Assembly (NCBI GenBank): GCA_016872515.1
Contig: VGZR01000012.1
Span: 1 to 64,000, forward strand
Source of the DNA: SAR202 cluster bacterium
GTDB taxonomy: Bacteria > Chloroflexota > Dehalococcoidia > Lucifugimonadales > VGZR01
Length of the DNA: 64,000 bases
Direction of reading: 5' to 3'
A model generated the notes under the pieces. It ran no database searches, was not told where the DNA came from, and was given only the letters and a program-made list of their open reading frames with translations. A program made the translations under genes and the position numbers. Of the stretch, positions 30,851 through 55,494 are shown piece after piece. The first letter of the stretch is position 1, and each line of letters begins with the position of its first letter.

Positions 30851-31969
30851 CTACCGCCGGAACCGCCGGTAGAGGCCGAGGGCCGCCAGCGGACCAACCA
30901 TCAGGAGGAAATTGGTCATCCCTGTTGTGATGGGTGCATCCACGTCAGGAGCACCGCAAGCCCCGCCTGAGGCCGCCGGCGTGGCCTGTGGCGTCGTCTG
31001 CTCAAGCGCCGAGGTGGGCTGCGGCGCTGCTGCACTTGTCGGAAACACCGGCACAGGCGTGAGTGTCGGCGATACTGGCACAGGCGTGAGTGTCGGCGAT
31101 ACTGGCACAGGCGTGAGTGTCGGCGATACTGGCACGGGCGTGAGTGTCGGAGACACCGGCACGGGCGTAGCCGTAGGGGTAATGGTCGGGGTCGCTGTAG
31201 GCGGCAGTGGGGTGGGGGTGAACGTGGGCTGCGGCGTGGGCGTGGGGGTCGGGACATCGAAGAAGACCAGAGTGAGGTCGCGCTTGACCGCCCCACTCGC
31301 GTAGCTATCCACCGTCCTGGAAACGACTCCGTTGAGCATGAACTCAATCGTCTTGCCTTCCAGGCCGGAGTCCTGCGGGTCTATGATGAGGTTGCGAAAG
31401 GTCTCTCCTTCTATCCGCGCCGGCAGAGACTCGTACGATCCGACCCTCGCCACCAGGACGGCACCCTCTGGGGTGACGCCGCCTGCCACAACGATGAATC
31501 CAGAATAGACGGCGGGGAAAACCACTTTGGGAGTGGCCGTTGGCACGGGGGTAAGCGTGGGCGTCGCTGTCGGTGTCGGCGTCGGGTCTGGTAGCTTCGG
31601 GAATGTAAGGTTGAAGCTGGTGTTCACCACCCCTGGCTGGTACGTCGCCGTTTGGTTAGCAAGCACGCCCTCTAGGTCAAAGGTGACAGCCTGGCCGATG
31701 AGGGCCTGGTCGTCGGGAGCCACTACAAGGAGTTCGTACCTGCCGTCTTTGACCTCCACAGGCGCGCTCTCGTAGCGGGTATCTATCCTCGCCACTAGAG
31801 TAAAGCCGTTTGGAACAGCCTTCCCTCCACCAGTCGCGCTGCCACTGAATACCGTCGGCAGGTTGGGTGGCTGTTCTTGCGCAGATGCGGGAGCTGCTGA
31901 AAGCAGCAAGGTCCCAACAAGCGCCGCTAACCCAAGGCCTACCCGGAGCCATTGTCGAACAGTCATCAC
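30851..31969 (-). CDS. Secreted two-domain surface protein with Thr/Pro repeat stalk and C-terminal TM
   Basis: Signal peptide; two related ~90-aa domains (FSGSATGGGKAVPNGFTLVARI... and YSGFIVVAGGVTPEGAVLVARV...); PVSPTLTPV repeats; C-terminal MTNFLLMVGPLAALGLYRRFRR. Confidence 0.7.
   Translation of the reverse strand: MMTVRQWLRVGLGLAALVGTLLLSAAPASAQEQPPNLPTVFSGSATGGGKAVPNGFTLVARIDTRYESAPVEVKDGRYELLVVAPDDQALIGQAVTFDLEGVLANQTATYQPGVVNTSFNLTFPKLPDPTPTPTATPTLTPVPTATPKVVFPAVYSGFIVVAGGVTPEGAVLVARVGSYESLPARIEGETFRNLIIDPQDSGLEGKTIEFMLNGVVSRTVDSYASGAVKRDLTLVFFDVPTPTPTPQPTFTPTPLPPTATPTITPTATPVPVSPTLTPVPVSPTLTPVPVSPTLTPVPVSPTLTPVPVFPTSAAAPQPTSALEQTTPQATPAASGGACGAPDVDAPITTGMTNFLLMVGPLAALGLYRRFRR
31053..31163 (-). 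repeat. 27-bp in-frame tandem repeat (about 4 copies)
   Basis: acaggcgtgagtgtcggcgatactggc repeated; encodes PVSPTLTPV. Confidence 0.9.
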
Positions 31970-45341: not shown

Positions 45342-45965
45342 GTGGCCCACGGCCAGACCTGGCTCCTGGTCGCCACGCGTAACCGCGGCAAACTCCGCGA
45401 GCTATCACGGCTGCTGGACGGCTCCCCGTTCCCGCTCGTCTCCCTCGACGACGTCAGCATCGGCGACCTGGTCGCCGAGACCGGCGCCACCCTCGAGGAG
45501 AACGCGACCCTCAAGGCCACCGAGTACGCCAGGCTCACCAGCCTGCCCACCCTCGCCGACGACTCCGCACTGGAGGTGGCCGCCCTTCGCGGCCAGCCGG
45601 GTGCCCGCTCCGCCCGCTTCGCAGGTGAGCAAGCCACCGACGCCGAGAACATCGCCCTGCTGCTGGAGAAGTTGATTGGCGTCCCGGACGAGGCCTTGGC
45701 CGCCAGCTTCCGCTGCGTCATCGCCACCGCCTGGCCCCAAAGGCCAGTCACGCTGTTCAGCGGCGAGTGCCGTGGCCGCATCGTCAGGACGCCCCGCGGA
45801 GCCAATGGCTTCGGCTACGACCCCGTCTTCTTCGTCCCGGAGCTAGGCCAGACCATGGCCGAGCTCACCCAGGAGCAGAAGGATTCCATAAGCCATCGGG
45901 GCATCGCCGCCCGGAAGGCGCTACAATGGCTGAATCGAGTGGCCACGGACAAAGAGCGACCATGA
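45342..45965 (+). CDS. rdgB: Non-canonical purine NTP pyrophosphatase
   Basis: LLVATRNRGKLRELSRLLDG, LADDSALEVAALRGQPGARSARFAG, GFGYDPVFFVPE. Confidence 0.93.
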   Translation: MAHGQTWLLVATRNRGKLRELSRLLDGSPFPLVSLDDVSIGDLVAETGATLEENATLKATEYARLTSLPTLADDSALEVAALRGQPGARSARFAGEQATDAENIALLLEKLIGVPDEALAASFRCVIATAWPQRPVTLFSGECRGRIVRTPRGANGFGYDPVFFVPELGQTMAELTQEQKDSISHRGIAARKALQWLNRVATDKERP

Positions 45966-46996
45966 CCACGTCAATACAGCGGAGACCAGCCACCATGAGG
46001 GACGCCTTCGAGCGGCCCTTCCGCGACTTGCGCATCTCGGTCACCGACCGGTGCAACTTCCGCTGCACCTACTGCATGCCCGCCGAGTTCTACGGTGAGC
46101 GGTACGAGTTCCTCCCCAAGGAAAAGCTCCTCACCTTCGAGGAGATCGCTCGCATCACGCGCATCCTCCTCAAGCTGGGCGCCGCCAAGCTGCGCCTCAC
46201 CGGCGGCGAGCCCCTCGTCCGCAACAACGTCGACCGCCTCGTCGCCATGCTCGCCAAACTCGACGGCGCACGCGACCTCACCATGACCACCAACGGCTAC
46301 CTGCTCCCAAAGTACGCCCAGGCGCTCAAGGGCGCCGGCCTGGAGCGCGTCACCGTCAGCCTCGACAGTCTCGACGATGAGGTCTTCAAGAAGATGAACG
46401 GGCGCGGCTTCGGCGCCGCCAGCGTCCTCGCCGGAATCCAGGCCGCCGAGAAGGCGGGCCTGACCCCCATCAAGATCAACGCCGTCGTCGTCCGGGGCGT
46501 CAACGACCACACCGTCGTTGACCTCGCCCGCTTCTTTAAGGAGCGCGGCCACATCGTCCGCTTCATCGAGTACATGGACGTCGGCAACCTCAACGGCTGG
46601 AAGATGGACAAGGTCGTCACCGCCGACGAGATCGTGGCGATGATAGACCGAGAGATGCCCCTGGAACCCGTCGAGAGCAACTACCGGGGCGAGGTCGCCC
46701 TCCGCTACCGCTACCGCGACGCCGCCGGCGAGATCGGCCTCATCGCTTCCGTCACCAAACCCTTCTGCGGCGACTGCACCCGCCTGCGCCTCTCCCCCGA
46801 GGGCCAACTCTTCACCTGTCTCTTCGGCACCAAGGGCACCGACCTGCGCGACCCAATGCGCGCCGGAGCGGCTGACGAGGCCATCGAGGCCATCATCCGC
46901 AAGGCCTGGGGCGTACGCACCGACCGCTATTCTGAGGAGCGCGCCTCCGTGACCGAGCCGCGCCGCAAGGTCGAGATGTACCACATCGGCGGATAA
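45962..46996 (+). CDS. moaA: GTP 3',8-cyclase MoaA
   Basis: RDLRISVTDRCNFRCTYCMPAEF (radical SAM CxxxCxxC), LRLTGGEPLVR, C-terminal FCGDCTRLRLSPEG; ATGA overlap with rdgB. Confidence 0.95.
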   Translation: MTTSIQRRPATMRDAFERPFRDLRISVTDRCNFRCTYCMPAEFYGERYEFLPKEKLLTFEEIARITRILLKLGAAKLRLTGGEPLVRNNVDRLVAMLAKLDGARDLTMTTNGYLLPKYAQALKGAGLERVTVSLDSLDDEVFKKMNGRGFGAASVLAGIQAAEKAGLTPIKINAVVVRGVNDHTVVDLARFFKERGHIVRFIEYMDVGNLNGWKMDKVVTADEIVAMIDREMPLEPVESNYRGEVALRYRYRDAAGEIGLIASVTKPFCGDCTRLRLSPEGQLFTCLFGTKGTDLRDPMRAGAADEAIEAIIRKAWGVRTDRYSEERASVTEPRRKVEMYHIGG

Positions 46997-47061: not shown

Positions 47062-48027
47062 ATGATTGAGATCTATACCGACGGCGCGTGCGACGGGAAC
47101 CCCGGCCGGGGCGGCTGGGCCGCCATCCTCGTCGAGGACGGCCGCCAGCGCGTCCTCCGCGGCGGCGAGCGACACACAACCAACAACCGCATGGAGATCA
47201 CCGCCGCCATCAAGGGCCTCGAGGCCGTGTCTGCCGACGCCGAGGTAACTGTGGTCAGCGACAGCGAGTACGTCATCAGGACCATGACCCGCAACTGGAA
47301 GCGCAACGCCAACACCGACCTCTGGCCCCGCCTCGATGCCCTCGTCGCCTCCCATCGCGTCCGGTGGGAATGGGTGCGCGGCCACACAGGGCATCCCCTC
47401 AACGAACTCGCCGACCGCGTCGCCAAGGAGGAGGCCGGCCTCCTCAAACCAGAGCTTCCCCCTTCTGGCAACTACGGTCCCGCCGAGACCACGCCATCCC
47501 TTCCCCCTCGAGGGGGGAAGGCGCAGGATGGGGGTGAGTATTCTAAGGCCTCTCGCCTCACCCACGTGGACGAGTCGGGTGCGGCCCGCATGGTGGATGT
47601 CGGCCACAAGCCCGACACCGAGCGGGTAGCCGTCGCCAAGGGCTCCGTCGTCATGGCCCCCGAGACGCTTTCGCTCATCAAGCGCAACGCCATCGCCAAG
47701 GGCGACGTCCTCTCCGTGGCCCGCACCGCCGGCATCATGGCCGCCAAGCGCACGCCCGACCTCATCCCCCTCTGCCATCCCCTGCCGCTGAGCAGCATCG
47801 CCGTGGACATGGCCCTCGACGAGGCCCGCAGCGCCGTGGATATCGCCGCCACCGTCAAGACGACCGGCAAGACCGGCGTCGAGATGGAGGCCCTCACGGC
47901 CGTCACCGTCGCCGCGCTGACCGTGTACGACATGTGCAAGGCCGTGGACCGGCGCATCCGCATCGAGGCGCTCAGGCTGGTCCGCAAGACCGGCGGCAAG
48001 AGCGGCGACCTCATCCTGGAGGAGTAG
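47062..48027 (+). CDS. RNase HI - MoaC (cyclic pyranopterin monophosphate synthase) fusion protein
   Basis: N-terminal [22 protein letters not shown]...[10 protein letters not shown]...SDSEYV...[17 protein letters not shown]-terminal [20 protein letters not shown]...[17 protein letters not shown]...[27 protein letters not shown]; one uninterrupted frame. Confidence 0.85.
47496..47538. repeat. Palindromic repeat, family A, inside the rnhA::moaC coding frame
   Basis: atcccttccccctcgaggggggaaggcgcaggatgggggtgag; compare the intergenic copies at 10602 and 17966. Confidence 0.8.
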
Positions 48028-48086
48028 CCCTGCCAGCTTTCAAGTTCTGGCGCCGCTCGCCCACGGCCACCACGCCGCGCCGGGGC

Positions 48087-48647
48087 GTGGATGCCGTTAT
48101 CGTCGGCCTCGGCAATCCGGGGCCGGAGTACGCCAACACCCGCCACAACGCCGGGTTCTGGTGCGTTGACCGCCTGGCCGACCTCCACCGCATCCGCCTG
48201 ACCACCAAGCACCAGACCTGTCTGCTGGGCGAGGGCGAGATCGAGGGTAAGGCTGTTGTGCTGGCCAAGCCGCGCACCTTCGTCAACCTCAGCGGCGAGG
48301 CGGCCCGCTACCTGCTCGCACGCTTCGGCGCCAAGCCCGATAAGCTCCTCGTCATCTACGACGACATGGACCTACCTATAGGCAAGATGCGCCTGCGTCC
48401 CAACGGCAGCCCCGCCGGCCATAACGGCATGAAGTCCATCACCGCCGCGCTGGGTACCGAGGCCTTCCCCCGCCTGCGCATCGGCATCGGCCGCCCTTCC
48501 GAAGGCGGTGGAAACATCGGCCATGTCCTGGGCAGGCTATCGCCGGAGGAGCAGAAGCTGGCGGACGAGGCGGTCGAGCGGGCCTCCCAGGCCGTGGCGT
48601 TTGTCCTCGCCGAGGGCATCGCCGCCGCTATGAACAAGTACAACTGA
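48087..48647 (+). CDS. pth: Peptidyl-tRNA hydrolase (start uncertain)
   Basis: DAVIVGLGNPGPEYANTRHNAGFWCVDRLA; VIYDDMDLPIGKMRLRPNGSPAGHNGMKSI. Confidence 0.92.
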   Translation: MDAVIVGLGNPGPEYANTRHNAGFWCVDRLADLHRIRLTTKHQTCLLGEGEIEGKAVVLAKPRTFVNLSGEAARYLLARFGAKPDKLLVIYDDMDLPIGKMRLRPNGSPAGHNGMKSITAALGTEAFPRLRIGIGRPSEGGGNIGHVLGRLSPEEQKLADEAVERASQAVAFVLAEGIAAAMNKYN

Positions 48648-49323: not shown

Positions 49324-50502
49324 CTAAGGGGTAAATATCTCCGAGGTGTGGAGGACCTTCTCGATGCTCTGGCCGCCGACGATGAGGACGGTGCCGTCCT
49401 TGAGCGCCGTCGCGGTGAACCGGTAGCGCGGGTCGGCCATGCTCCCCGACACCGACCAGGTATCCGTCGCGGGGTCATAGAGCTCGGCGACCCGCACGTC
49501 GCCGACGCCGCCCACCACGAGCACCCGTCCGTCCGCCAGCAGCGTCGCCACATGCTCCAGCCGCGCGTTCTGCATCTCCCCAGCAGGCGTCCACGAGTTG
49601 GTCTCCGGGTCCCAGATCTCGGCCGTTTTCAGCTTGCCCGCACCGCCAACGATCAGCACACGCCCGTCCGCGAGCAGCGTCGCTGTATGCAGCGCGTGGG
49701 CCTTGGACAACTGGCCGGTCGGCGTCCAGGTGTTGGCGACCGGGTCGTACACCTCCGCCGAGTCGAGCCATGGCCCGTCCAGCTTGCCGCCGCCCACCGC
49801 CAGCACGCGCCCGTCGGCCAGCAGCGTCAGTGTGTGCAAGCTGCGGCCCACCGACATCGGCGCCAGCTCCGTCCACGTGTTCGCCGCCGGGTCGTAGGCC
49901 TCCACCAGCGCCAGCGAACGGAACGTCTTGTCCTTCCCGCCAGCCACCAGCACGCGTCCGTCCTTCAGCACGACCGCAAGCGGAATCTCCTTGTGTATCT
50001 TCATGCTGGCTGCGGCAGACCATTGACCGGTCTCAGGGTCCCAAATCTCGGCGGTCTTGTACGGGTCTATGCTCGTGTCCGTTCCGCCGGCCACCAGTAC
50101 GCGCCCGTCGGGCAACAGCGCCGCTGCGGGGGCCTGGCGCTCGCTCTTCATGTCGCCGGAGCTTGTCCACTGGCCAGTGACCGGGTCGTAGAGCTCGGTG
50201 TGGGAGTGGACCACCGGCCACTCGCTCACGCCCTTGGCCCTGCCGCCCGCCACGAATACCCGGCCGTCAGGCAGGAGGAGCGCAGCATGGTACGAGCGGG
50301 CATCGCTCATGTTCGTCAGTGTGGCCGTGAACTTCCCGCCGGACGGTGTGCCTTTGGATGCCGACGGCTCGGTGGCCCTGCCCTCAACCTGTTCCGTGGT
50401 GGAGTCGCTGGAAGAGCTTGGCGCCGCAGGCGAGCCGCTGCACGCCGCGAGAAACGCCGCGATCACAGCCACCGCCCCAAACATCAAAAGCCGCCTTATC
50501 AC
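49324..50502 (-). CDS. Kelch-repeat (seven-motif beta-propeller) lipoprotein, array copy 1
   Basis: Lipobox AAFLAACSGS; seven L-x-DGRVLVxGG motifs; GGGKLDGPWLDSAEVYDP; ends EIFTP. Confidence 0.85.
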   Translation of the reverse strand: MIRRLLMFGAVAVIAAFLAACSGSPAAPSSSSDSTTEQVEGRATEPSASKGTPSGGKFTATLTNMSDARSYHAALLLPDGRVFVAGGRAKGVSEWPVVHSHTELYDPVTGQWTSSGDMKSERQAPAAALLPDGRVLVAGGTDTSIDPYKTAEIWDPETGQWSAAASMKIHKEIPLAVVLKDGRVLVAGGKDKTFRSLALVEAYDPAANTWTELAPMSVGRSLHTLTLLADGRVLAVGGGKLDGPWLDSAEVYDPVANTWTPTGQLSKAHALHTATLLADGRVLIVGGAGKLKTAEIWDPETNSWTPAGEMQNARLEHVATLLADGRVLVVGGVGDVRVAELYDPATDTWSVSGSMADPRYRFTATALKDGTVLIVGGQSIEKVLHTSEIFTP

Positions 50503-50537
50503 CCTGTCCTCGCCTCCAGCTATTTACATCTCTCGCG

Positions 50538-51716
50538 CTACGGGGTGTAAACCTCGGTCTTCGCCAGGACACCCTCTTCGCCGTGGCCTCCGGGTATGAA
50601 AACCGTGCCGTCCTTGAGCAGCACCATGGTATGCCGGTAGCGGGACTCGTTCATATTGCCCGCGCTGGACCAGGCGCCGCTCTCCGGGTCAAAGATCTCG
50701 GCGGTGGCAAGATTACCGATGCCGCCGGTGACGAGCACCTTGCCGTCGGGCAGCAGTATCGCGGCATGTTCAGCCCGTGGGTCCTTAGTCTCTCCTGCCG
50801 GACTGAACGCGCCGGTGGCGGGGTCGAACAGCTCCGCCTTCCGCCGCTTGCCCTTCCCGCCGACCACCAACACACGCCCATCATCAAGAAGGGTGGAGGT
50901 GTGAAGCGCGCGTCCCAAGGACATGTCCGCTACGGGGGTCCATGTGTCTGTCTGAGGGTCATACACTTCAGCCGACTTGATGAATGGGCCATCGGGGATG
51001 CCGCCGCCGGTGACTAGCACGCGCCCGTCGGGCAGGAGTGTCGAGGCATGGTTGATGCGCGCCACGTTCATCGGCGCCACGTCCGACCAGACGCCGGTGG
51101 CGGGGTCATAGACCTCCGCCGTGTTCAGGTGCTTGACGGTGACATCGTCTATCCCACCGGTCACGAGCACACGCCCGTCTTGCAACTGCACCGCCGACGG
51201 GAACTCACGGGCGGCCCGCATCTCGCCTGTGTACGTCCACGTTCCGGTTGCCGGGTCCCATAGCTCCGAAGTCCTGTACGGATGGTAGTTGATGGACCTG
51301 CCGGCAGCTGCCAGCACTTTGCCGTTGGGCAAAAGGAAAAGCAGCGCCTGTTGTCTCTCGTTCTGCATCTCGCTGGTTGCGGTGGACAGCCCGGTGGCGG
51401 GGTCATAGACGTCAGCCTCGGAGTGGACGTTGGCGAACCCTTCGGCGACGCCGACCCCGCGTCCACCCACCGTGAGCACTTTGCCATCGGGCAGGAGCAC
51501 CGAGGCATGGAGCTCACGCGCTGTCTTCATCTCGCCCGAGGCGGCAAACTGCCCAGACGCCTTCGACGAGACCGCCGCCGCCTTCGTGGGCTCGGCTTGC
51601 GCCGTGCCGCCCGTGCCGGGGGTCGTCGAGGCGGCCGGCGTGGCACCACCACAGGTCACCAGCAAGGCGGCCAAAACCACTGTAACGAGAGCCAGTCCCC
51701 GCACCCTACCTCCCAC
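50538..51716 (-). CDS. Kelch-repeat lipoprotein, array copy 2
   Basis: Lipobox AALLVTCGGA; seven kelch motifs; GGGIPDGPFIKSAEVYDP; ends TEVYTP. Confidence 0.85.
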   Translation of the reverse strand: MGGRVRGLALVTVVLAALLVTCGGATPAASTTPGTGGTAQAEPTKAAAVSSKASGQFAASGEMKTARELHASVLLPDGKVLTVGGRGVGVAEGFANVHSEADVYDPATGLSTATSEMQNERQQALLFLLPNGKVLAAAGRSINYHPYRTSELWDPATGTWTYTGEMRAAREFPSAVQLQDGRVLVTGGIDDVTVKHLNTAEVYDPATGVWSDVAPMNVARINHASTLLPDGRVLVTGGGIPDGPFIKSAEVYDPQTDTWTPVADMSLGRALHTSTLLDDGRVLVVGGKGKRRKAELFDPATGAFSPAGETKDPRAEHAAILLPDGKVLVTGGIGNLATAEIFDPESGAWSSAGNMNESRYRHTMVLLKDGTVFIPGGHGEEGVLAKTEVYTP

Positions 51717-51737
51717 CGAGCCGTCGGCTGTCTTCGG

Positions 51738-52952
51738 CTACGGGGTGAAGATCTCGGTCGCTGCTAGCAATCCGTCTTTGCCTACGCCGCCCGGCACTAC
51801 CACGGTGCCATCTCCCAGCACGAGCGTGGGGAACCGGAGGCGTCCGTCGGCCATCGAAGGCCCGGATGCCCAGGTGTTGTTAGCCGGGTTGTACACCTCA
51901 GATGTGGCGAGATTGCCTATCCCGCCGATGACGATTACCCTGCCATCGGGAAGGAGCGCGGCGCCGTGCTCGCCACGGGCCTCCGCCATGTTGCCAGCCG
52001 ACGTCCAGCTGTTCGTCGCCGGGTCGTAGAGCTCCGCCGACGTCCGCTTGCCCCGGCCTCCGGCCACCAGTACCTTGCCGTCTTGCAACCGCGTCGCGGA
52101 GTGGTTAGCTCTTCCCTGGGCCATCTCCCCCGCGGGCATGAACGAGTTAGTCGCAGGGTCGTACACCTCGGCTGTTTTGGAGAACGGTCCGTCAACCTTG
52201 CCGCCTCCGACCACAAGCACGCGTCCATCTTTGAGCAGCGTCGCCGTGTGGTTGGCCCTGGAGTCGGACATATCCGGGCCGATCGTCCACTCGCCCGTCG
52301 CGGCGTCATACATCTCGGTGGTTGCCTGCATCGCGTACTCTTTGGTGAATCCGCCGAAGACCATCACCCGCCCGTCGTTCAGCACCACGCCGCCAAAGAA
52401 GTCCCGCTCGTGGTTCATGTTCTTCGCGGGTGTCCACTCGCCCGCCCCGGGGTCCCAAATCTCGACGGTAGGCTGCGCGAACGTTGAGTGCCCACGGCCG
52501 CCGACAACCAAAACCTTGCCATTCCCTAGGACGAACAGGCCCATGTCGTGGCGGTCATCTTTCATGAGGCCGCTCTCCGTCCAACTCCCGCTTGCCGGGA
52601 CATAGACCTCCGAGGAGTAGTGAATAGGCTTGTTGAGGTTGGTGCCGCCGGTGCCGGCGCCGCCGACGACGAGGATCCGCCCGTCCTGCAGTACGACACC
52701 GGCGTGCTGCTGGCGCCTTGCGGTCATGTCACCCGACTTCTTGAATGCACCACCCGACTTGGACGCACTGCTGGCAGGTTTAGCCGTGGCGGATTTCGTG
52801 ACCTGGGTCGTATTAGATCGCTCCGCCTGGCTCTCCCCGCCACTCGTCGGCGCTGCTGTCGGAGCAGGCTCCGCGGAACCGCCTCCGCAGGCCGCGAGGA
52901 GTGCAGCGATGAGCAAGGCCGCTATCACAACGAGGAAAGGTTTGCGTCTCAT
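51738..52952 (-). CDS. Kelch-repeat lipoprotein, array copy 3
   Basis: Lipobox AALLAACGGG; seven kelch motifs; GGGKVDGPFSKTAEVYDP; ends TEIFTP. Confidence 0.85.
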   Translation of the reverse strand: MRRKPFLVVIAALLIAALLAACGGGSAEPAPTAAPTSGGESQAERSNTTQVTKSATAKPASSASKSGGAFKKSGDMTARRQQHAGVVLQDGRILVVGGAGTGGTNLNKPIHYSSEVYVPASGSWTESGLMKDDRHDMGLFVLGNGKVLVVGGRGHSTFAQPTVEIWDPGAGEWTPAKNMNHERDFFGGVVLNDGRVMVFGGFTKEYAMQATTEMYDAATGEWTIGPDMSDSRANHTATLLKDGRVLVVGGGKVDGPFSKTAEVYDPATNSFMPAGEMAQGRANHSATRLQDGKVLVAGGRGKRTSAELYDPATNSWTSAGNMAEARGEHGAALLPDGRVIVIGGIGNLATSEVYNPANNTWASGPSMADGRLRFPTLVLGDGTVVVPGGVGKDGLLAATEIFTP

Positions 52953-53049
52953 GGGTCCTCCTGGGTCGTTTCTTTAGAGATAGAACGGCTCAGGTCGCTT
53001 TTCGTTCCGTTAGGATACCTATTTGCGCGCTGGGATTCAAATCCGCTAG

Positions 53050-54201
53050 TCAGGGGGTGTAGAGCTCCGCCTCAGCGAGCACCGAATCCGTGCTCTGCCC
53101 AGCAGAGACCAGCACCCGCCCGTCTCTCAGCGTGGTGGCGGCGAAGCGGTAGCGCGGCTCGAACATGCTGCCGGTGGGCGACCAGGCTCCCGATGCCGGG
53201 TCGAACACCTCCGCCGACGTCAGCTTGCCGACTCCGCCGACGACGAGCACGCGTCCGTCGGACAGCAGCGCGGCGGTGTGATCGGCCCGTGGTGATGCAG
53301 TGTTTCCGGCTGGGGTCCACGTGTTCGACACGGGATCCCAGATCTCCGCAGACGTGCGTTTCCCTCTTCCGCCGACCACCAGCACTCTGCCGTCCTTCAG
53401 CAGCGTCGCGGTGTGCAGCGCACGGCTGGCGGACATCGTGCCCGCGGAAGACCACGCATCTGTGGCCGGGTCGTACACCTCCGCAGAGGCGAGGTAGGGG
53501 CCGTCGAACTTGCCTCCGCCGACGGCTAACCCGCGACCGTCGTCCAACAACGTCGTGGTGTGCAAAGCCCTCGCCACGGCCATCGGCGCGGCATCCGACC
53601 ACGTCCCAGTGGCAGGGTCATAGACCTCCACGGACGCCAAAAACTTGAACGTCTTGTCCTTCCCGCCCACGGCCAGCACACGGCCGTCTTTCAGGGTTAC
53701 CAGGCCGAACTCACGCCTCGCTTCTTTCATGGCGCCGGTGGGTCGCCACGTACCGGTGGCGGGGTCCCAAAGCTCCGCCGTGCCCTTCACCGTACCGTGG
53801 TTGCCGATGCCACCCGCCGCAAGCACGCGGCCACCCTGGAGCAACGCGATCGCTGGCAGCTCCCGCTCTTCGGCCATCTCGCCGGTCCTCGCCCAAAGGC
53901 CGGTGGCCGGGTCGTACAGCTCCGCCGTCTTGTGGATGACTGCGGTGTGGCCGACGCCCTTCCCTCTTCCGCCGACCACGAGCACACGCCCATCAGGGAG
54001 GAGCAACGCGGCATGGGAGATGCGCGCCTCTTTCATCGTGCCTGCGCGCGCAAACTGGCCCGAGGCAGCCGAAGGGATGTCCGCTGCGGGTTTTGACTCT
54101 GCGCTTCCGGACGGCACAGGCGCAGCCGCCGGGCTGCCGCAGGCGGCGGCGAGGACTGCGAACACCAGCACGGTGGTGAGTGCGGCGACTACAAGCTTCA
54201 C
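53050..54201 (-). CDS. Kelch-repeat lipoprotein, array copy 4
   Basis: Lipobox AVLAAACGSP; seven kelch motifs; GGGKFDGPYLASAEVYDP; ends AELYTP. Confidence 0.85.
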   Translation of the reverse strand: MKLVVAALTTVLVFAVLAAACGSPAAAPVPSGSAESKPAADIPSAASGQFARAGTMKEARISHAALLLPDGRVLVVGGRGKGVGHTAVIHKTAELYDPATGLWARTGEMAEERELPAIALLQGGRVLAAGGIGNHGTVKGTAELWDPATGTWRPTGAMKEARREFGLVTLKDGRVLAVGGKDKTFKFLASVEVYDPATGTWSDAAPMAVARALHTTTLLDDGRGLAVGGGKFDGPYLASAEVYDPATDAWSSAGTMSASRALHTATLLKDGRVLVVGGRGKRTSAEIWDPVSNTWTPAGNTASPRADHTAALLSDGRVLVVGGVGKLTSAEVFDPASGAWSPTGSMFEPRYRFAATTLRDGRVLVSAGQSTDSVLAEAELYTP

Positions 54202-54282
54202 TGCAATTCCCCTCCTTCCCGGATAGAACCGAGGTGTTTAGCTACATGCGGGTATAACGACTATTCGAGAGTGTTCAGATTC

Positions 54283-55494
54283 CTAGGGCGTGTACAACTC
54301 CGTCTCGGCCAGCAGCTTCGATTGACCCTGCCCTCCGGCCAAAAGGACCCGCCCATCCCGCAGCAGGACCGCAGGATGGCGGTAGCGGGAGATCGCCATG
54401 TTGCCTGCCGCAGACCAAGTACCTGTCGCCGGGTCGTAAATCTCGCCCGACGTACGGTTGCCAACGCCGCCAGTGATGAGGACGCGCCCGTCAGCCAGCA
54501 GCGTCGCGCTGTGGTCGGCGCGCGGCTCCGCGGTGCTTCCGGTGGGAGTCCACGTTTCGGTCGCGGGGTCCCAGAGCTCGGCGGATGTCTTCTGTCCCTT
54601 GCCGCCGACGATGAGCACGCGCCCATCCTTGAGGAGTGTCGCCGAATGGGAGATGCGGGCCACGGACATCTCGCCTGCGGGCGACCAGGTATCCGTGGCG
54701 GGGTCGTACGCCTCCGCCGACTTCAAGTACGGCCCATCCGTCTTGCCGCCGCCGGTCACGAGGACGCGACCGTCTTGGAGGACGGTGGCGGTGTGGTAGA
54801 GCCTTGGCGCAGACATGGGCGCCGCCTTCGTCCATGCAGCGGTAGCCGGGTCGTAGATCTCGGCCGAGGCCAAGAGAGAGAACGTCTCGCTATTCCCGCC
54901 GATCACCATCACGCGTCCGTCTTTGAGCACCACCAGGTTGTACTCGTCGCGGGCCTCGTTCAGTTTCGCGGCGGCAGACCATGTGCCCGTGGCGGGGTCC
55001 CAGACGTCCACATCCGTCTGGCCCTCCCTTTCGCTACCCATGCCAGCCACGGCAAGCACTTTCCCATCGGGCAGCAGCGCCATTGCGAATGCACTGCGTT
55101 CCTCAAGCATCGTCCCGGTCAGGTGCCACTCGCCCGTGGCGGGGTCGTAGATCTCTGCGGTGTCACTGACCTGGCCCTGGTGCCCCCGGGCAGTCTTCTT
55201 GCCGCCGGCTGCGAGAACTCTGCCGTCCGGCAGCAACAACGCCGCGTGGAAGGATCGGCCGTCCTTCATCGCGCCGGTCTCAGAGAACCCCGACTTGGAA
55301 GTGACTTTCGCCGCCGCGGTTGACGCCACCTGCGGGGTTTCCCTTGCGGCGGGCGCAGGAGTAGCGGCTCCCCCGCTGCAGGCCATGAATAGCAAGGCAG
55401 CAAGTTGAAAAGAGAGCAGCAATGCACCACCGAGGACTGTGGGCATAAGTGCAGTGTACTGCCTACGCATGCCTGCATGTCCTCCTCGAAACAC
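54283..55494 (-). CDS. Kelch-repeat lipoprotein, array copy 5
   Basis: Lipobox-like ALLFMACSGG; seven kelch motifs; GGGKTDGPYLKSAEAYDP; ends TELYTP. Confidence 0.85.
   Translation of the reverse strand: MFRGGHAGMRRQYTALMPTVLGGALLLSFQLAALLFMACSGGAATPAPAARETPQVASTAAAKVTSKSGFSETGAMKDGRSFHAALLLPDGRVLAAGGKKTARGHQGQVSDTAEIYDPATGEWHLTGTMLEERSAFAMALLPDGKVLAVAGMGSEREGQTDVDVWDPATGTWSAAAKLNEARDEYNLVVLKDGRVMVIGGNSETFSLLASAEIYDPATAAWTKAAPMSAPRLYHTATVLQDGRVLVTGGGKTDGPYLKSAEAYDPATDTWSPAGEMSVARISHSATLLKDGRVLIVGGKGQKTSAELWDPATETWTPTGSTAEPRADHSATLLADGRVLITGGVGNRTSGEIYDPATGTWSAAGNMAISRYRHPAVLLRDGRVLLAGGQGQSKLLAETELYTP

What the first reader, a model, noticed from the sequence alone, without database searches (positions are those of the whole stretch)
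47062..48027. RNase HI and MoaC fused in one ORF, with the linker encoded by a dispersed palindromic repeat
The 321-aa frame carries a complete RNase HI (acidic and His positions readable: YTDGAC, MEIT, SDSEY, GHTGH, LADRVA) joined to a complete MoaC ([18 protein letters not shown]). The linker [17 protein letters not shown] is translated from a family-A repeat (47496-47538) that is otherwise intergenic. Reading each codon from the RNase HI end to the conserved MoaC LTH, I find no in-frame ATG, GTG or TTG. The first is GTG 47566, which would remove the conserved MoaC N-terminus and has no obvious Shine-Dalgarno. The locus reads moaA - rnhA::moaC - pth. This suggests that repeat insertion or a repeat-mediated deletion removed the rnhA stop and moaC start and created a bifunctional polypeptide. 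I know of no established functional link between RNase HI and molybdopterin synthesis, so a neutral fusion is the default reading.
Basis: partly seen in the sequence, partly recalled or inferred. Interest (0 to 1): 0.82.

Follow-up and report, generated by a model that had tools for sequence, protein, structure and literature searches.

The report
Widespread RNase HI–MoaC fusion, repeat inserted later

Summary
ORF 47062-48027 (321 aa) joins a complete RNase HI to a complete MoaC in one frame. The linker has no in-frame start codon. Residues 146-159 are encoded by a copy of a dispersed palindromic repeat, and of 65 copies read in this genome it is the only one inside a gene.

The repeat did not make the fusion. 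The only same-genus relative held is fused too, with a 6-aa linker and no repeat. Of 95 same-order genomes read, 63 are fused, 26 have adjacent separate genes and 6 have no rnhA beside moaC. Ten further fused genomes lie in other orders of the class (Dehalococcoidia, from one matched public record). None was listed among ~260 genomes of other Chloroflexota classes. The RNase H tree needs at least 12 fused/separate changes, five forced by well-supported forks. Unfused pairs typically overlap (ATGA, TAATG), so small junction indels are the likely route.

A second lineage carries a different dispersed repeat in the same linker, which is predicted to be disordered. In 64 of 81 fused genomes the fusion is the only RNase HI found.

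Best reading: an inherited two-enzyme protein, most like mycobacterial RNase HI-CobC, with a tolerated repeat insertion. I found no description of it in the papers or family models searched.

The parts
47062..48027 (+). rnhA::moaC fusion gene, 321 aa, including stop codon
   Evidence: One open frame; Pfam RNase_H and MoaC both over cut-off; same architecture in 81 genomes read.
47062..47436 (+). RNase HI domain (residues 1-125); catalytic D7, E45, D67, H108, D118 intact; the 14-residue basic-protrusion ('handle') segment of E. coli-type RNase HI is absent
   Evidence: Pfam 3-125; catalytic columns; alignment with handle-bearing relatives; AlphaFold pLDDT mostly 80-96.
47437..47556 (+). Linker region without any in-frame start codon; predicted disordered at residues 130-164
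   Evidence: Codon scan; pLDDT below 50 at residues 130-164; the same linker in relatives is 0-66 aa.
47496..47538 (+). Copy of a dispersed palindromic REP-like repeat; encodes residues 146-159 [14 protein letters not shown]
   Evidence: 77 pattern matches (45 forward, 32 reverse; palindromes are hit on both strands) against 0 for the reversed control; 65 places read, 1 intragenic.
47557..48024 (+). MoaC domain from LTH to the C terminus; conserved H, E, E, D, K, K positions intact
   Evidence: Pfam 177-312; NCBIfam MoaC equivalog TIGR00581 206.7 bits, cut-off 141.5; residue check.
45342..45962 (+). Ham1/ITPase gene upstream in the same order
   Evidence: PF01725, 2.2e-61; found upstream in 43 of 76 fused loci with at least 1.5 kb of flank.
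45995..46996 (+). moaA
   Evidence: Radical_SAM and Mob_synth_C; found upstream in 54 of 76 fused loci with flank.
48069..48647 (+). pth (peptidyl-tRNA hydrolase), conserved part of the ORF; the exact start was not determined
   Evidence: PF01195, 7.3e-66; found downstream in 21 of 83 fused loci with at least 0.7 kb of flank.

Best explanation
This is an inherited two-enzyme protein, not a fusion made by the repeat. In this class of Chloroflexota rnhA lies directly upstream of moaC in an operon-like run (Ham1/ITPase, moaA, rnhA, moaC), and in many unfused genomes the rnhA stop overlaps the moaC start (ATGA, TAATG). Small indels at that overlap put the two frames in register, which has happened several times (or has happened and been undone). 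The window's lineage was already fused before it split from its same-genus relative. A REP-like palindromic element, common between genes of this genome, later went into the linker in a frame without a stop, lengthening a disordered tether. The ribosome makes one polypeptide: the N-terminal domain is this genome's only detected RNase HI and the C-terminal domain its only MoaC. Because MoaC forms hexamers (general knowledge), the expected particle is a MoaC hexamer carrying six tethered RNase HI domains. Shown: the fusion, its distribution, the junction overlaps, the repeat census. Inferred: single-chain translation, activity of both halves, hexamer, order of events.
For: 63 of 95 same-order genomes fused, 26 adjacent but separate; 10 fused genomes in 8 families of other orders of the class. 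Same-genus G001 fused, 6-aa linker, no repeat. At least 12 fused/separate changes on the RNase H tree, at least 5 forced by starred forks. 11 of 26 separate pairs have a moaC start overlapping the rnhA stop by 1, 4 or 8 nt. G077 (fused) and G089 (separate, ATGAGTAA overlap) are near-identical sisters differing by small junction indels. 43 of 81 fused genes have no start codon at all in the linker. Only one RNase HI and one MoaC in this genome; the fused copy is the sole RNase HI in 64 of 81 fused genomes, and none of those has lost a catalytic residue, one being unreadable at one position. 64 of 65 repeat copies are not inside genes. A different dispersed repeat lies in the same linker in G095 and G069 but not in G347 of the same genus, whose genome has no copies. 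Linker predicted disordered, both domains confident.
Against: No proteomics or enzyme assay; proteolysis in the linker could yield two proteins. Most genomes are drafts, so individual fused or split calls could be indel errors. Parsimony counts cannot tell fusion from fission. No empty-site proof for the repeat: G001 is too diverged (about 70-75% protein identity) to show a target duplication.
Confidence: 0.86

Rival explanations
1. The repeat (insertion or repeat-mediated deletion) created the fusion in this lineage by removing the rnhA stop and the moaC start; G001 fused independently.
For: The linker copy is the only intragenic one of 65, as expected if it had been intergenic before fusion; fusion has happened more than once.
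Against: The sister G001 and the nearest f14 genomes (three of them) are fused without a repeat; unfused pairs overlap or nearly touch, leaving little intergenic room for a 43-bp element; nearly all other fused linkers lack any recognisable repeat.
Confidence: 0.05
2. The frame is open but two proteins are made: MoaC starts internally (for example at GTG 47566) or the linker is cleaved, so the fusion is formal only.
For: The linker is predicted disordered and so cleavable; the repeat tail GGGGGTGAG resembles a Shine-Dalgarno sequence (sequence reading only).
Against: No ATG/GTG/TTG/CTG/ATT/ATC/ATA before the conserved LTH; GTG 47566 would remove LTH, and H168 of LTH is an invariant column in 17 aligned sequences; 43 of 81 fused genes lack any start in the linker.
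Confidence: 0.07
3. Only the MoaC half matters; the RNase HI half is a passenger on its way to decay.
For: In G043 and G065 (one lineage) the fused RNase HI has lost three catalytic residues while MoaC is intact, and a separate RNase HI exists elsewhere in those genomes.
Against: In the window genome and 63 others the fused domain is the only RNase HI found, and none has lost a catalytic residue. Loss is confined to genomes with a second copy: 2 of 17 against 0 of 64, a single evolutionary event.
Confidence: 0.04

Closest known systems
RNase HI-CobC/acid phosphatase of Actinomycetales (Rv2228c, MSMEG_4305, SCO2299; NCBIfam NF005567/PRK07238)
   Same: N-terminal RNase HI joined by a highly variable linker to a C-terminal enzyme linked to cofactor synthesis; both halves conserved. 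MSMEG_4305 domains were found functionally dissociable and the fusion was judged most probably fixed by drift (PMC7466739).
   Different: The partner is MoaC, not CobC; different phylum; here the fusion recurs and is often the only RNase HI, whereas M. smegmatis has a second RNase HI. The window protein scores only 38 bits against NF005567 (cut-off 326), from the RNase H part alone.
Known MoaC fusions: MoaC-MoaB (PRK03604), MoaC-MOSC (PRK14499), MoaC-MobA (PRK14500)
   Same: MoaC as one half of a two-domain protein.
   Different: In these the partner belongs to molybdenum-cofactor chemistry and MoaC is N-terminal; here the partner is a nucleic-acid enzyme and MoaC is C-terminal. The window protein fails their cut-offs.
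Intragenic REP elements and Rickettsia palindromic elements (PMC3733652, PMC10969869)
   Same: A short palindromic dispersed repeat read in frame inside a gene.
   Different: RPEs enter ORFs often (nearly half of those reported, PMC10969869); here 1 of 65. The genome has no Y1_Tnp/RAYT-type transposase, and the repeat's GTAG/CGTC tag status was not tested.

Membership tests
Ribonuclease HI | RNase_H domain with catalytic D-E-D plus H and D (E. coli D10, E48, D70, H124, D134) | tested here: met
   D7, E45, D67, H108, D118 present; Pfam 116.8 bits, cut-off 25.8. The full-length NCBIfam equivalog NF001236 scores 148, just under its cut-off of 160, possibly because of the missing handle.
Ribonuclease HI | Cleaves RNA of RNA-DNA hybrids | not testable with these tools
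   Needs an assay or complementation.
MoaC (cyclic pyranopterin monophosphate synthase) | Full-length MoaC equivalog match and conserved catalytic residues | tested here: met
   TIGR00581 206.7 bits, cut-off 141.5, model 1-148 of 148; H, E, E, D, K, K positions intact.
MoaC (cyclic pyranopterin monophosphate synthase) | Hexamer | not tested
   Only a monomer was predicted.
RNase HI-CobC bifunctional proteins (PRK07238) | C-terminal CobC/phosphatase domain | tested here: not met
   The C-terminal domain is MoaC; NF005567 matches the RNase H part only, 38 of 326 bits. It resembles this family in design but is not a member.
Rickettsia palindromic elements (in-gene palindromic elements) | Frequent in-frame residence inside ORFs | tested here: not met
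   1 of 65 copies.
REP elements of the RAYT type | RAYT/Y1 transposase in the genome | tested here: not met
   PF01797: 0 matches in the genome, 94% complete.
REP elements (structural sense) | Short palindrome, many copies, mostly between genes | tested here: met

The most novel reading that the evidence does not exclude
The fusion recurs because it is useful: MoaC's hexamer serves as a scaffold that displays several copies of an RNase HI lacking the usual basic substrate-binding protrusion, so that tethering restores hybrid binding (or links R-loop removal to cofactor synthesis). The strong skew, 76 of 81 fused domains without a handle against 15 of 30 unfused, fits this but reflects a single loss of the handle on the tree and so is not independent evidence.
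Probability: 0.13. Interest if true: 0.72.

Novelty: new variant of a known kind. Interest (0 to 1): 0.43.

Why it matters
It gives a clear case in which two unrelated housekeeping enzymes fuse repeatedly because their genes sit in an overlapping stop/start, with fused, unfused and half-decayed states all available in one class. That makes 'gene fusion implies functional link' testable on a good candidate for a false positive, and it warns against predicting function from fusion alone. It also shows mobile palindromes being tolerated in the same linker in two lineages. For annotators, one protein supplies both RNase HI and MoaC in many uncultured Chloroflexota and no NCBIfam model searched describes that architecture.

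Tried and rejected
Repeat as cause of the fusion: rejected by fused relatives without the repeat. In-gene (RPE-like) repeat habit: rejected, 1 of 65. A first codon-usage model trained on the longest ORFs was contaminated by antisense ORFs and was replaced by an iterated one. RAYT mobilisation: no Y1_Tnp in the genome. Handle loss explaining fusion: untestable, because handle loss is one change on the tree. mRNA hairpin of the linker: not more stable than shuffles (z -0.74). Internal promoter or terminator: none found. Literature on an RNase H-MoaC fusion: two full-text searches gave nothing relevant. The first neighbour count used wrong frames for MoaA and Pth; one search replaces it.

Full report
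WHAT IS THERE. The ORF 47062-48027 encodes 321 residues. Pfam finds RNase_H at 3-125 (116.8 bits) and MoaC at 177-312 (198.1 bits); NCBIfam calls the C-terminal part the MoaC equivalog (206.7 bits against a cut-off of 141.5), and no NCBIfam model covers both halves. All five RNase HI catalytic residues and all MoaC key residues checked are present. No start codon of any kind in table 11 lies between residue 126 and the conserved LTH of MoaC; the first is GTG 47566 inside LTHV. The genome (2.28 Mb, 91 contigs, 94% complete) has one MoaC, one RNase HI, which is this one, and one RNase HII.

WHERE IT LIES. Upstream are a Ham1/ITPase gene and moaA, downstream pth, all on the same strand. Of 76 fused loci with at least 1.5 kb of upstream sequence, 54 show MoaA and 43 the ITPase.

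THE FUSION IS WIDESPREAD. I searched 98 same-order genomes and read the DNA of 95 rnhA/moaC loci: 63 fused, 26 adjacent but separate, 6 with no rnhA beside moaC. A class-wide search (393 genomes) added fused genes in 8 families of other orders (read). Among about 260 genomes of other classes of the phylum no full-length match was listed, and three long moaC frames checked there hold no RNase H. That table was cut off, so rare or strongly diverged fusions outside the class are not excluded. Of the best 80 loci of a scan over about 85,000 species, the only two with RNase HI in or beside moaC are fused Chloroflexota.

IT IS RECURRENT. The RNase H tree needs at least 12 changes between fused and separate, at least 5 of them forced by starred branches; the MoaC tree is less resolved and also forces at least 5. 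The clearest repeat events involve a distinct, handle-bearing RNase HI clade, mostly unfused, within which G064 and the g69 genomes are fused. Gain and loss cannot be separated.

HOW IT PROBABLY ARISES. In 11 of 26 unfused pairs the best moaC start overlaps the rnhA stop by 1, 4 or 8 nt, often with a Shine-Dalgarno-like upstream sequence. G089 (unfused, ATGAGTAA) and G077 (fused) are near-identical sisters whose junctions differ by small indels that put the two frames in register. This is a route, not a proof of direction.

THE REPEAT IS SECONDARY. The core of the repeat occurs at 65 places in the stretches read; only 47500 has coding signal on both sides in one frame. The same-genus G001 has three weak matches in its whole (83% complete) genome and a 6-aa linker, so its fusion does not depend on the repeat. 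The window linker is about 100 nt longer at the same place. Independently, G095 and G069 carry in the same linker a different dispersed repeat (GGGGAGAGGGCTGGGGTGAGGG; 40 and 58 genome matches), while G347 of the same genus is fused without it and has no copies. So this linker took up repeats in at least two lineages, which fits a disordered, unconstrained tether: the linker varies from 0 to 66 aa and AlphaFold gives pLDDT below 50 for residues 130-164 against confident domains (alignment only 17 deep and 3 deep for RNase H).

IS THE RNASE H HALF ALIVE? In 64 of 81 fused genomes the fused gene is the only RNase HI found, and none of these has lost a catalytic residue (one is unreadable at one position). 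Only G043 and G065 have lost them (D10A, H124P, D134W), and both have a separate RNase HI. The association (Fisher p 0.04) rests on one evolutionary event and is only suggestive.

COMPARISON WITH WHAT IS KNOWN. The nearest design is the mycobacterial RNase HI-CobC protein, whose domains were found dissociable in vivo, whose linker is highly variable and whose fixation was ascribed to drift (PMC7466739). The present protein works like that but is not a member: its partner is MoaC. Intragenic REP elements are also known (PMC3733652). I found no description of an RNase HI-MoaC fusion in two full-text searches nor in NCBIfam; other databases were not available.

VERDICT. A true, inherited and recurrent two-enzyme fusion, with a later repeat insertion in its linker. 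Neutral fixation from an overlapping gene pair is the default; a functional reason remains possible but unshown.

Noticed in passing
G043:C52 (L223) and G065:C19 (L030): Fused protein with a degenerate RNase HI (D10A, H124P, D134W) and intact MoaC, next to a separate intact-looking RNase HI elsewhere in the genome: a natural half-dead fusion.
   Followed up: partly
L276 (G406), also G369, G394, G457: Directly upstream of the fused gene lies an ORF of about 500 aa with two RNase H-like domains, one weakly matching, so three RNase H domains stand in a row before MoaC.
   Followed up: no
L254 (G095) and L255 (G069), rnhA-moaC linker: A different dispersed palindromic repeat lies in frame in the same linker; G347 of the same genus lacks it.
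   Followed up: yes
window 49324-55283, minus strand: A run of kelch-repeat proteins (the first with a lipoprotein-like N terminus), five paralogous blocks about 1.2 kb apart.
   Followed up: partly
window 31010-31198: Tandem array of 27-bp units, read as a short-period repeat.
   Followed up: no
whole genome G000: The palindromic repeat has two sub-families (CTTCCCCCTYGAGGGGGGAAGG and CCTCCCCCTTGAGGGGGGAGGA) and is nearly absent from the same-genus G001; no Y1_Tnp transposase is found, so its mobiliser is unknown.
   Followed up: partly
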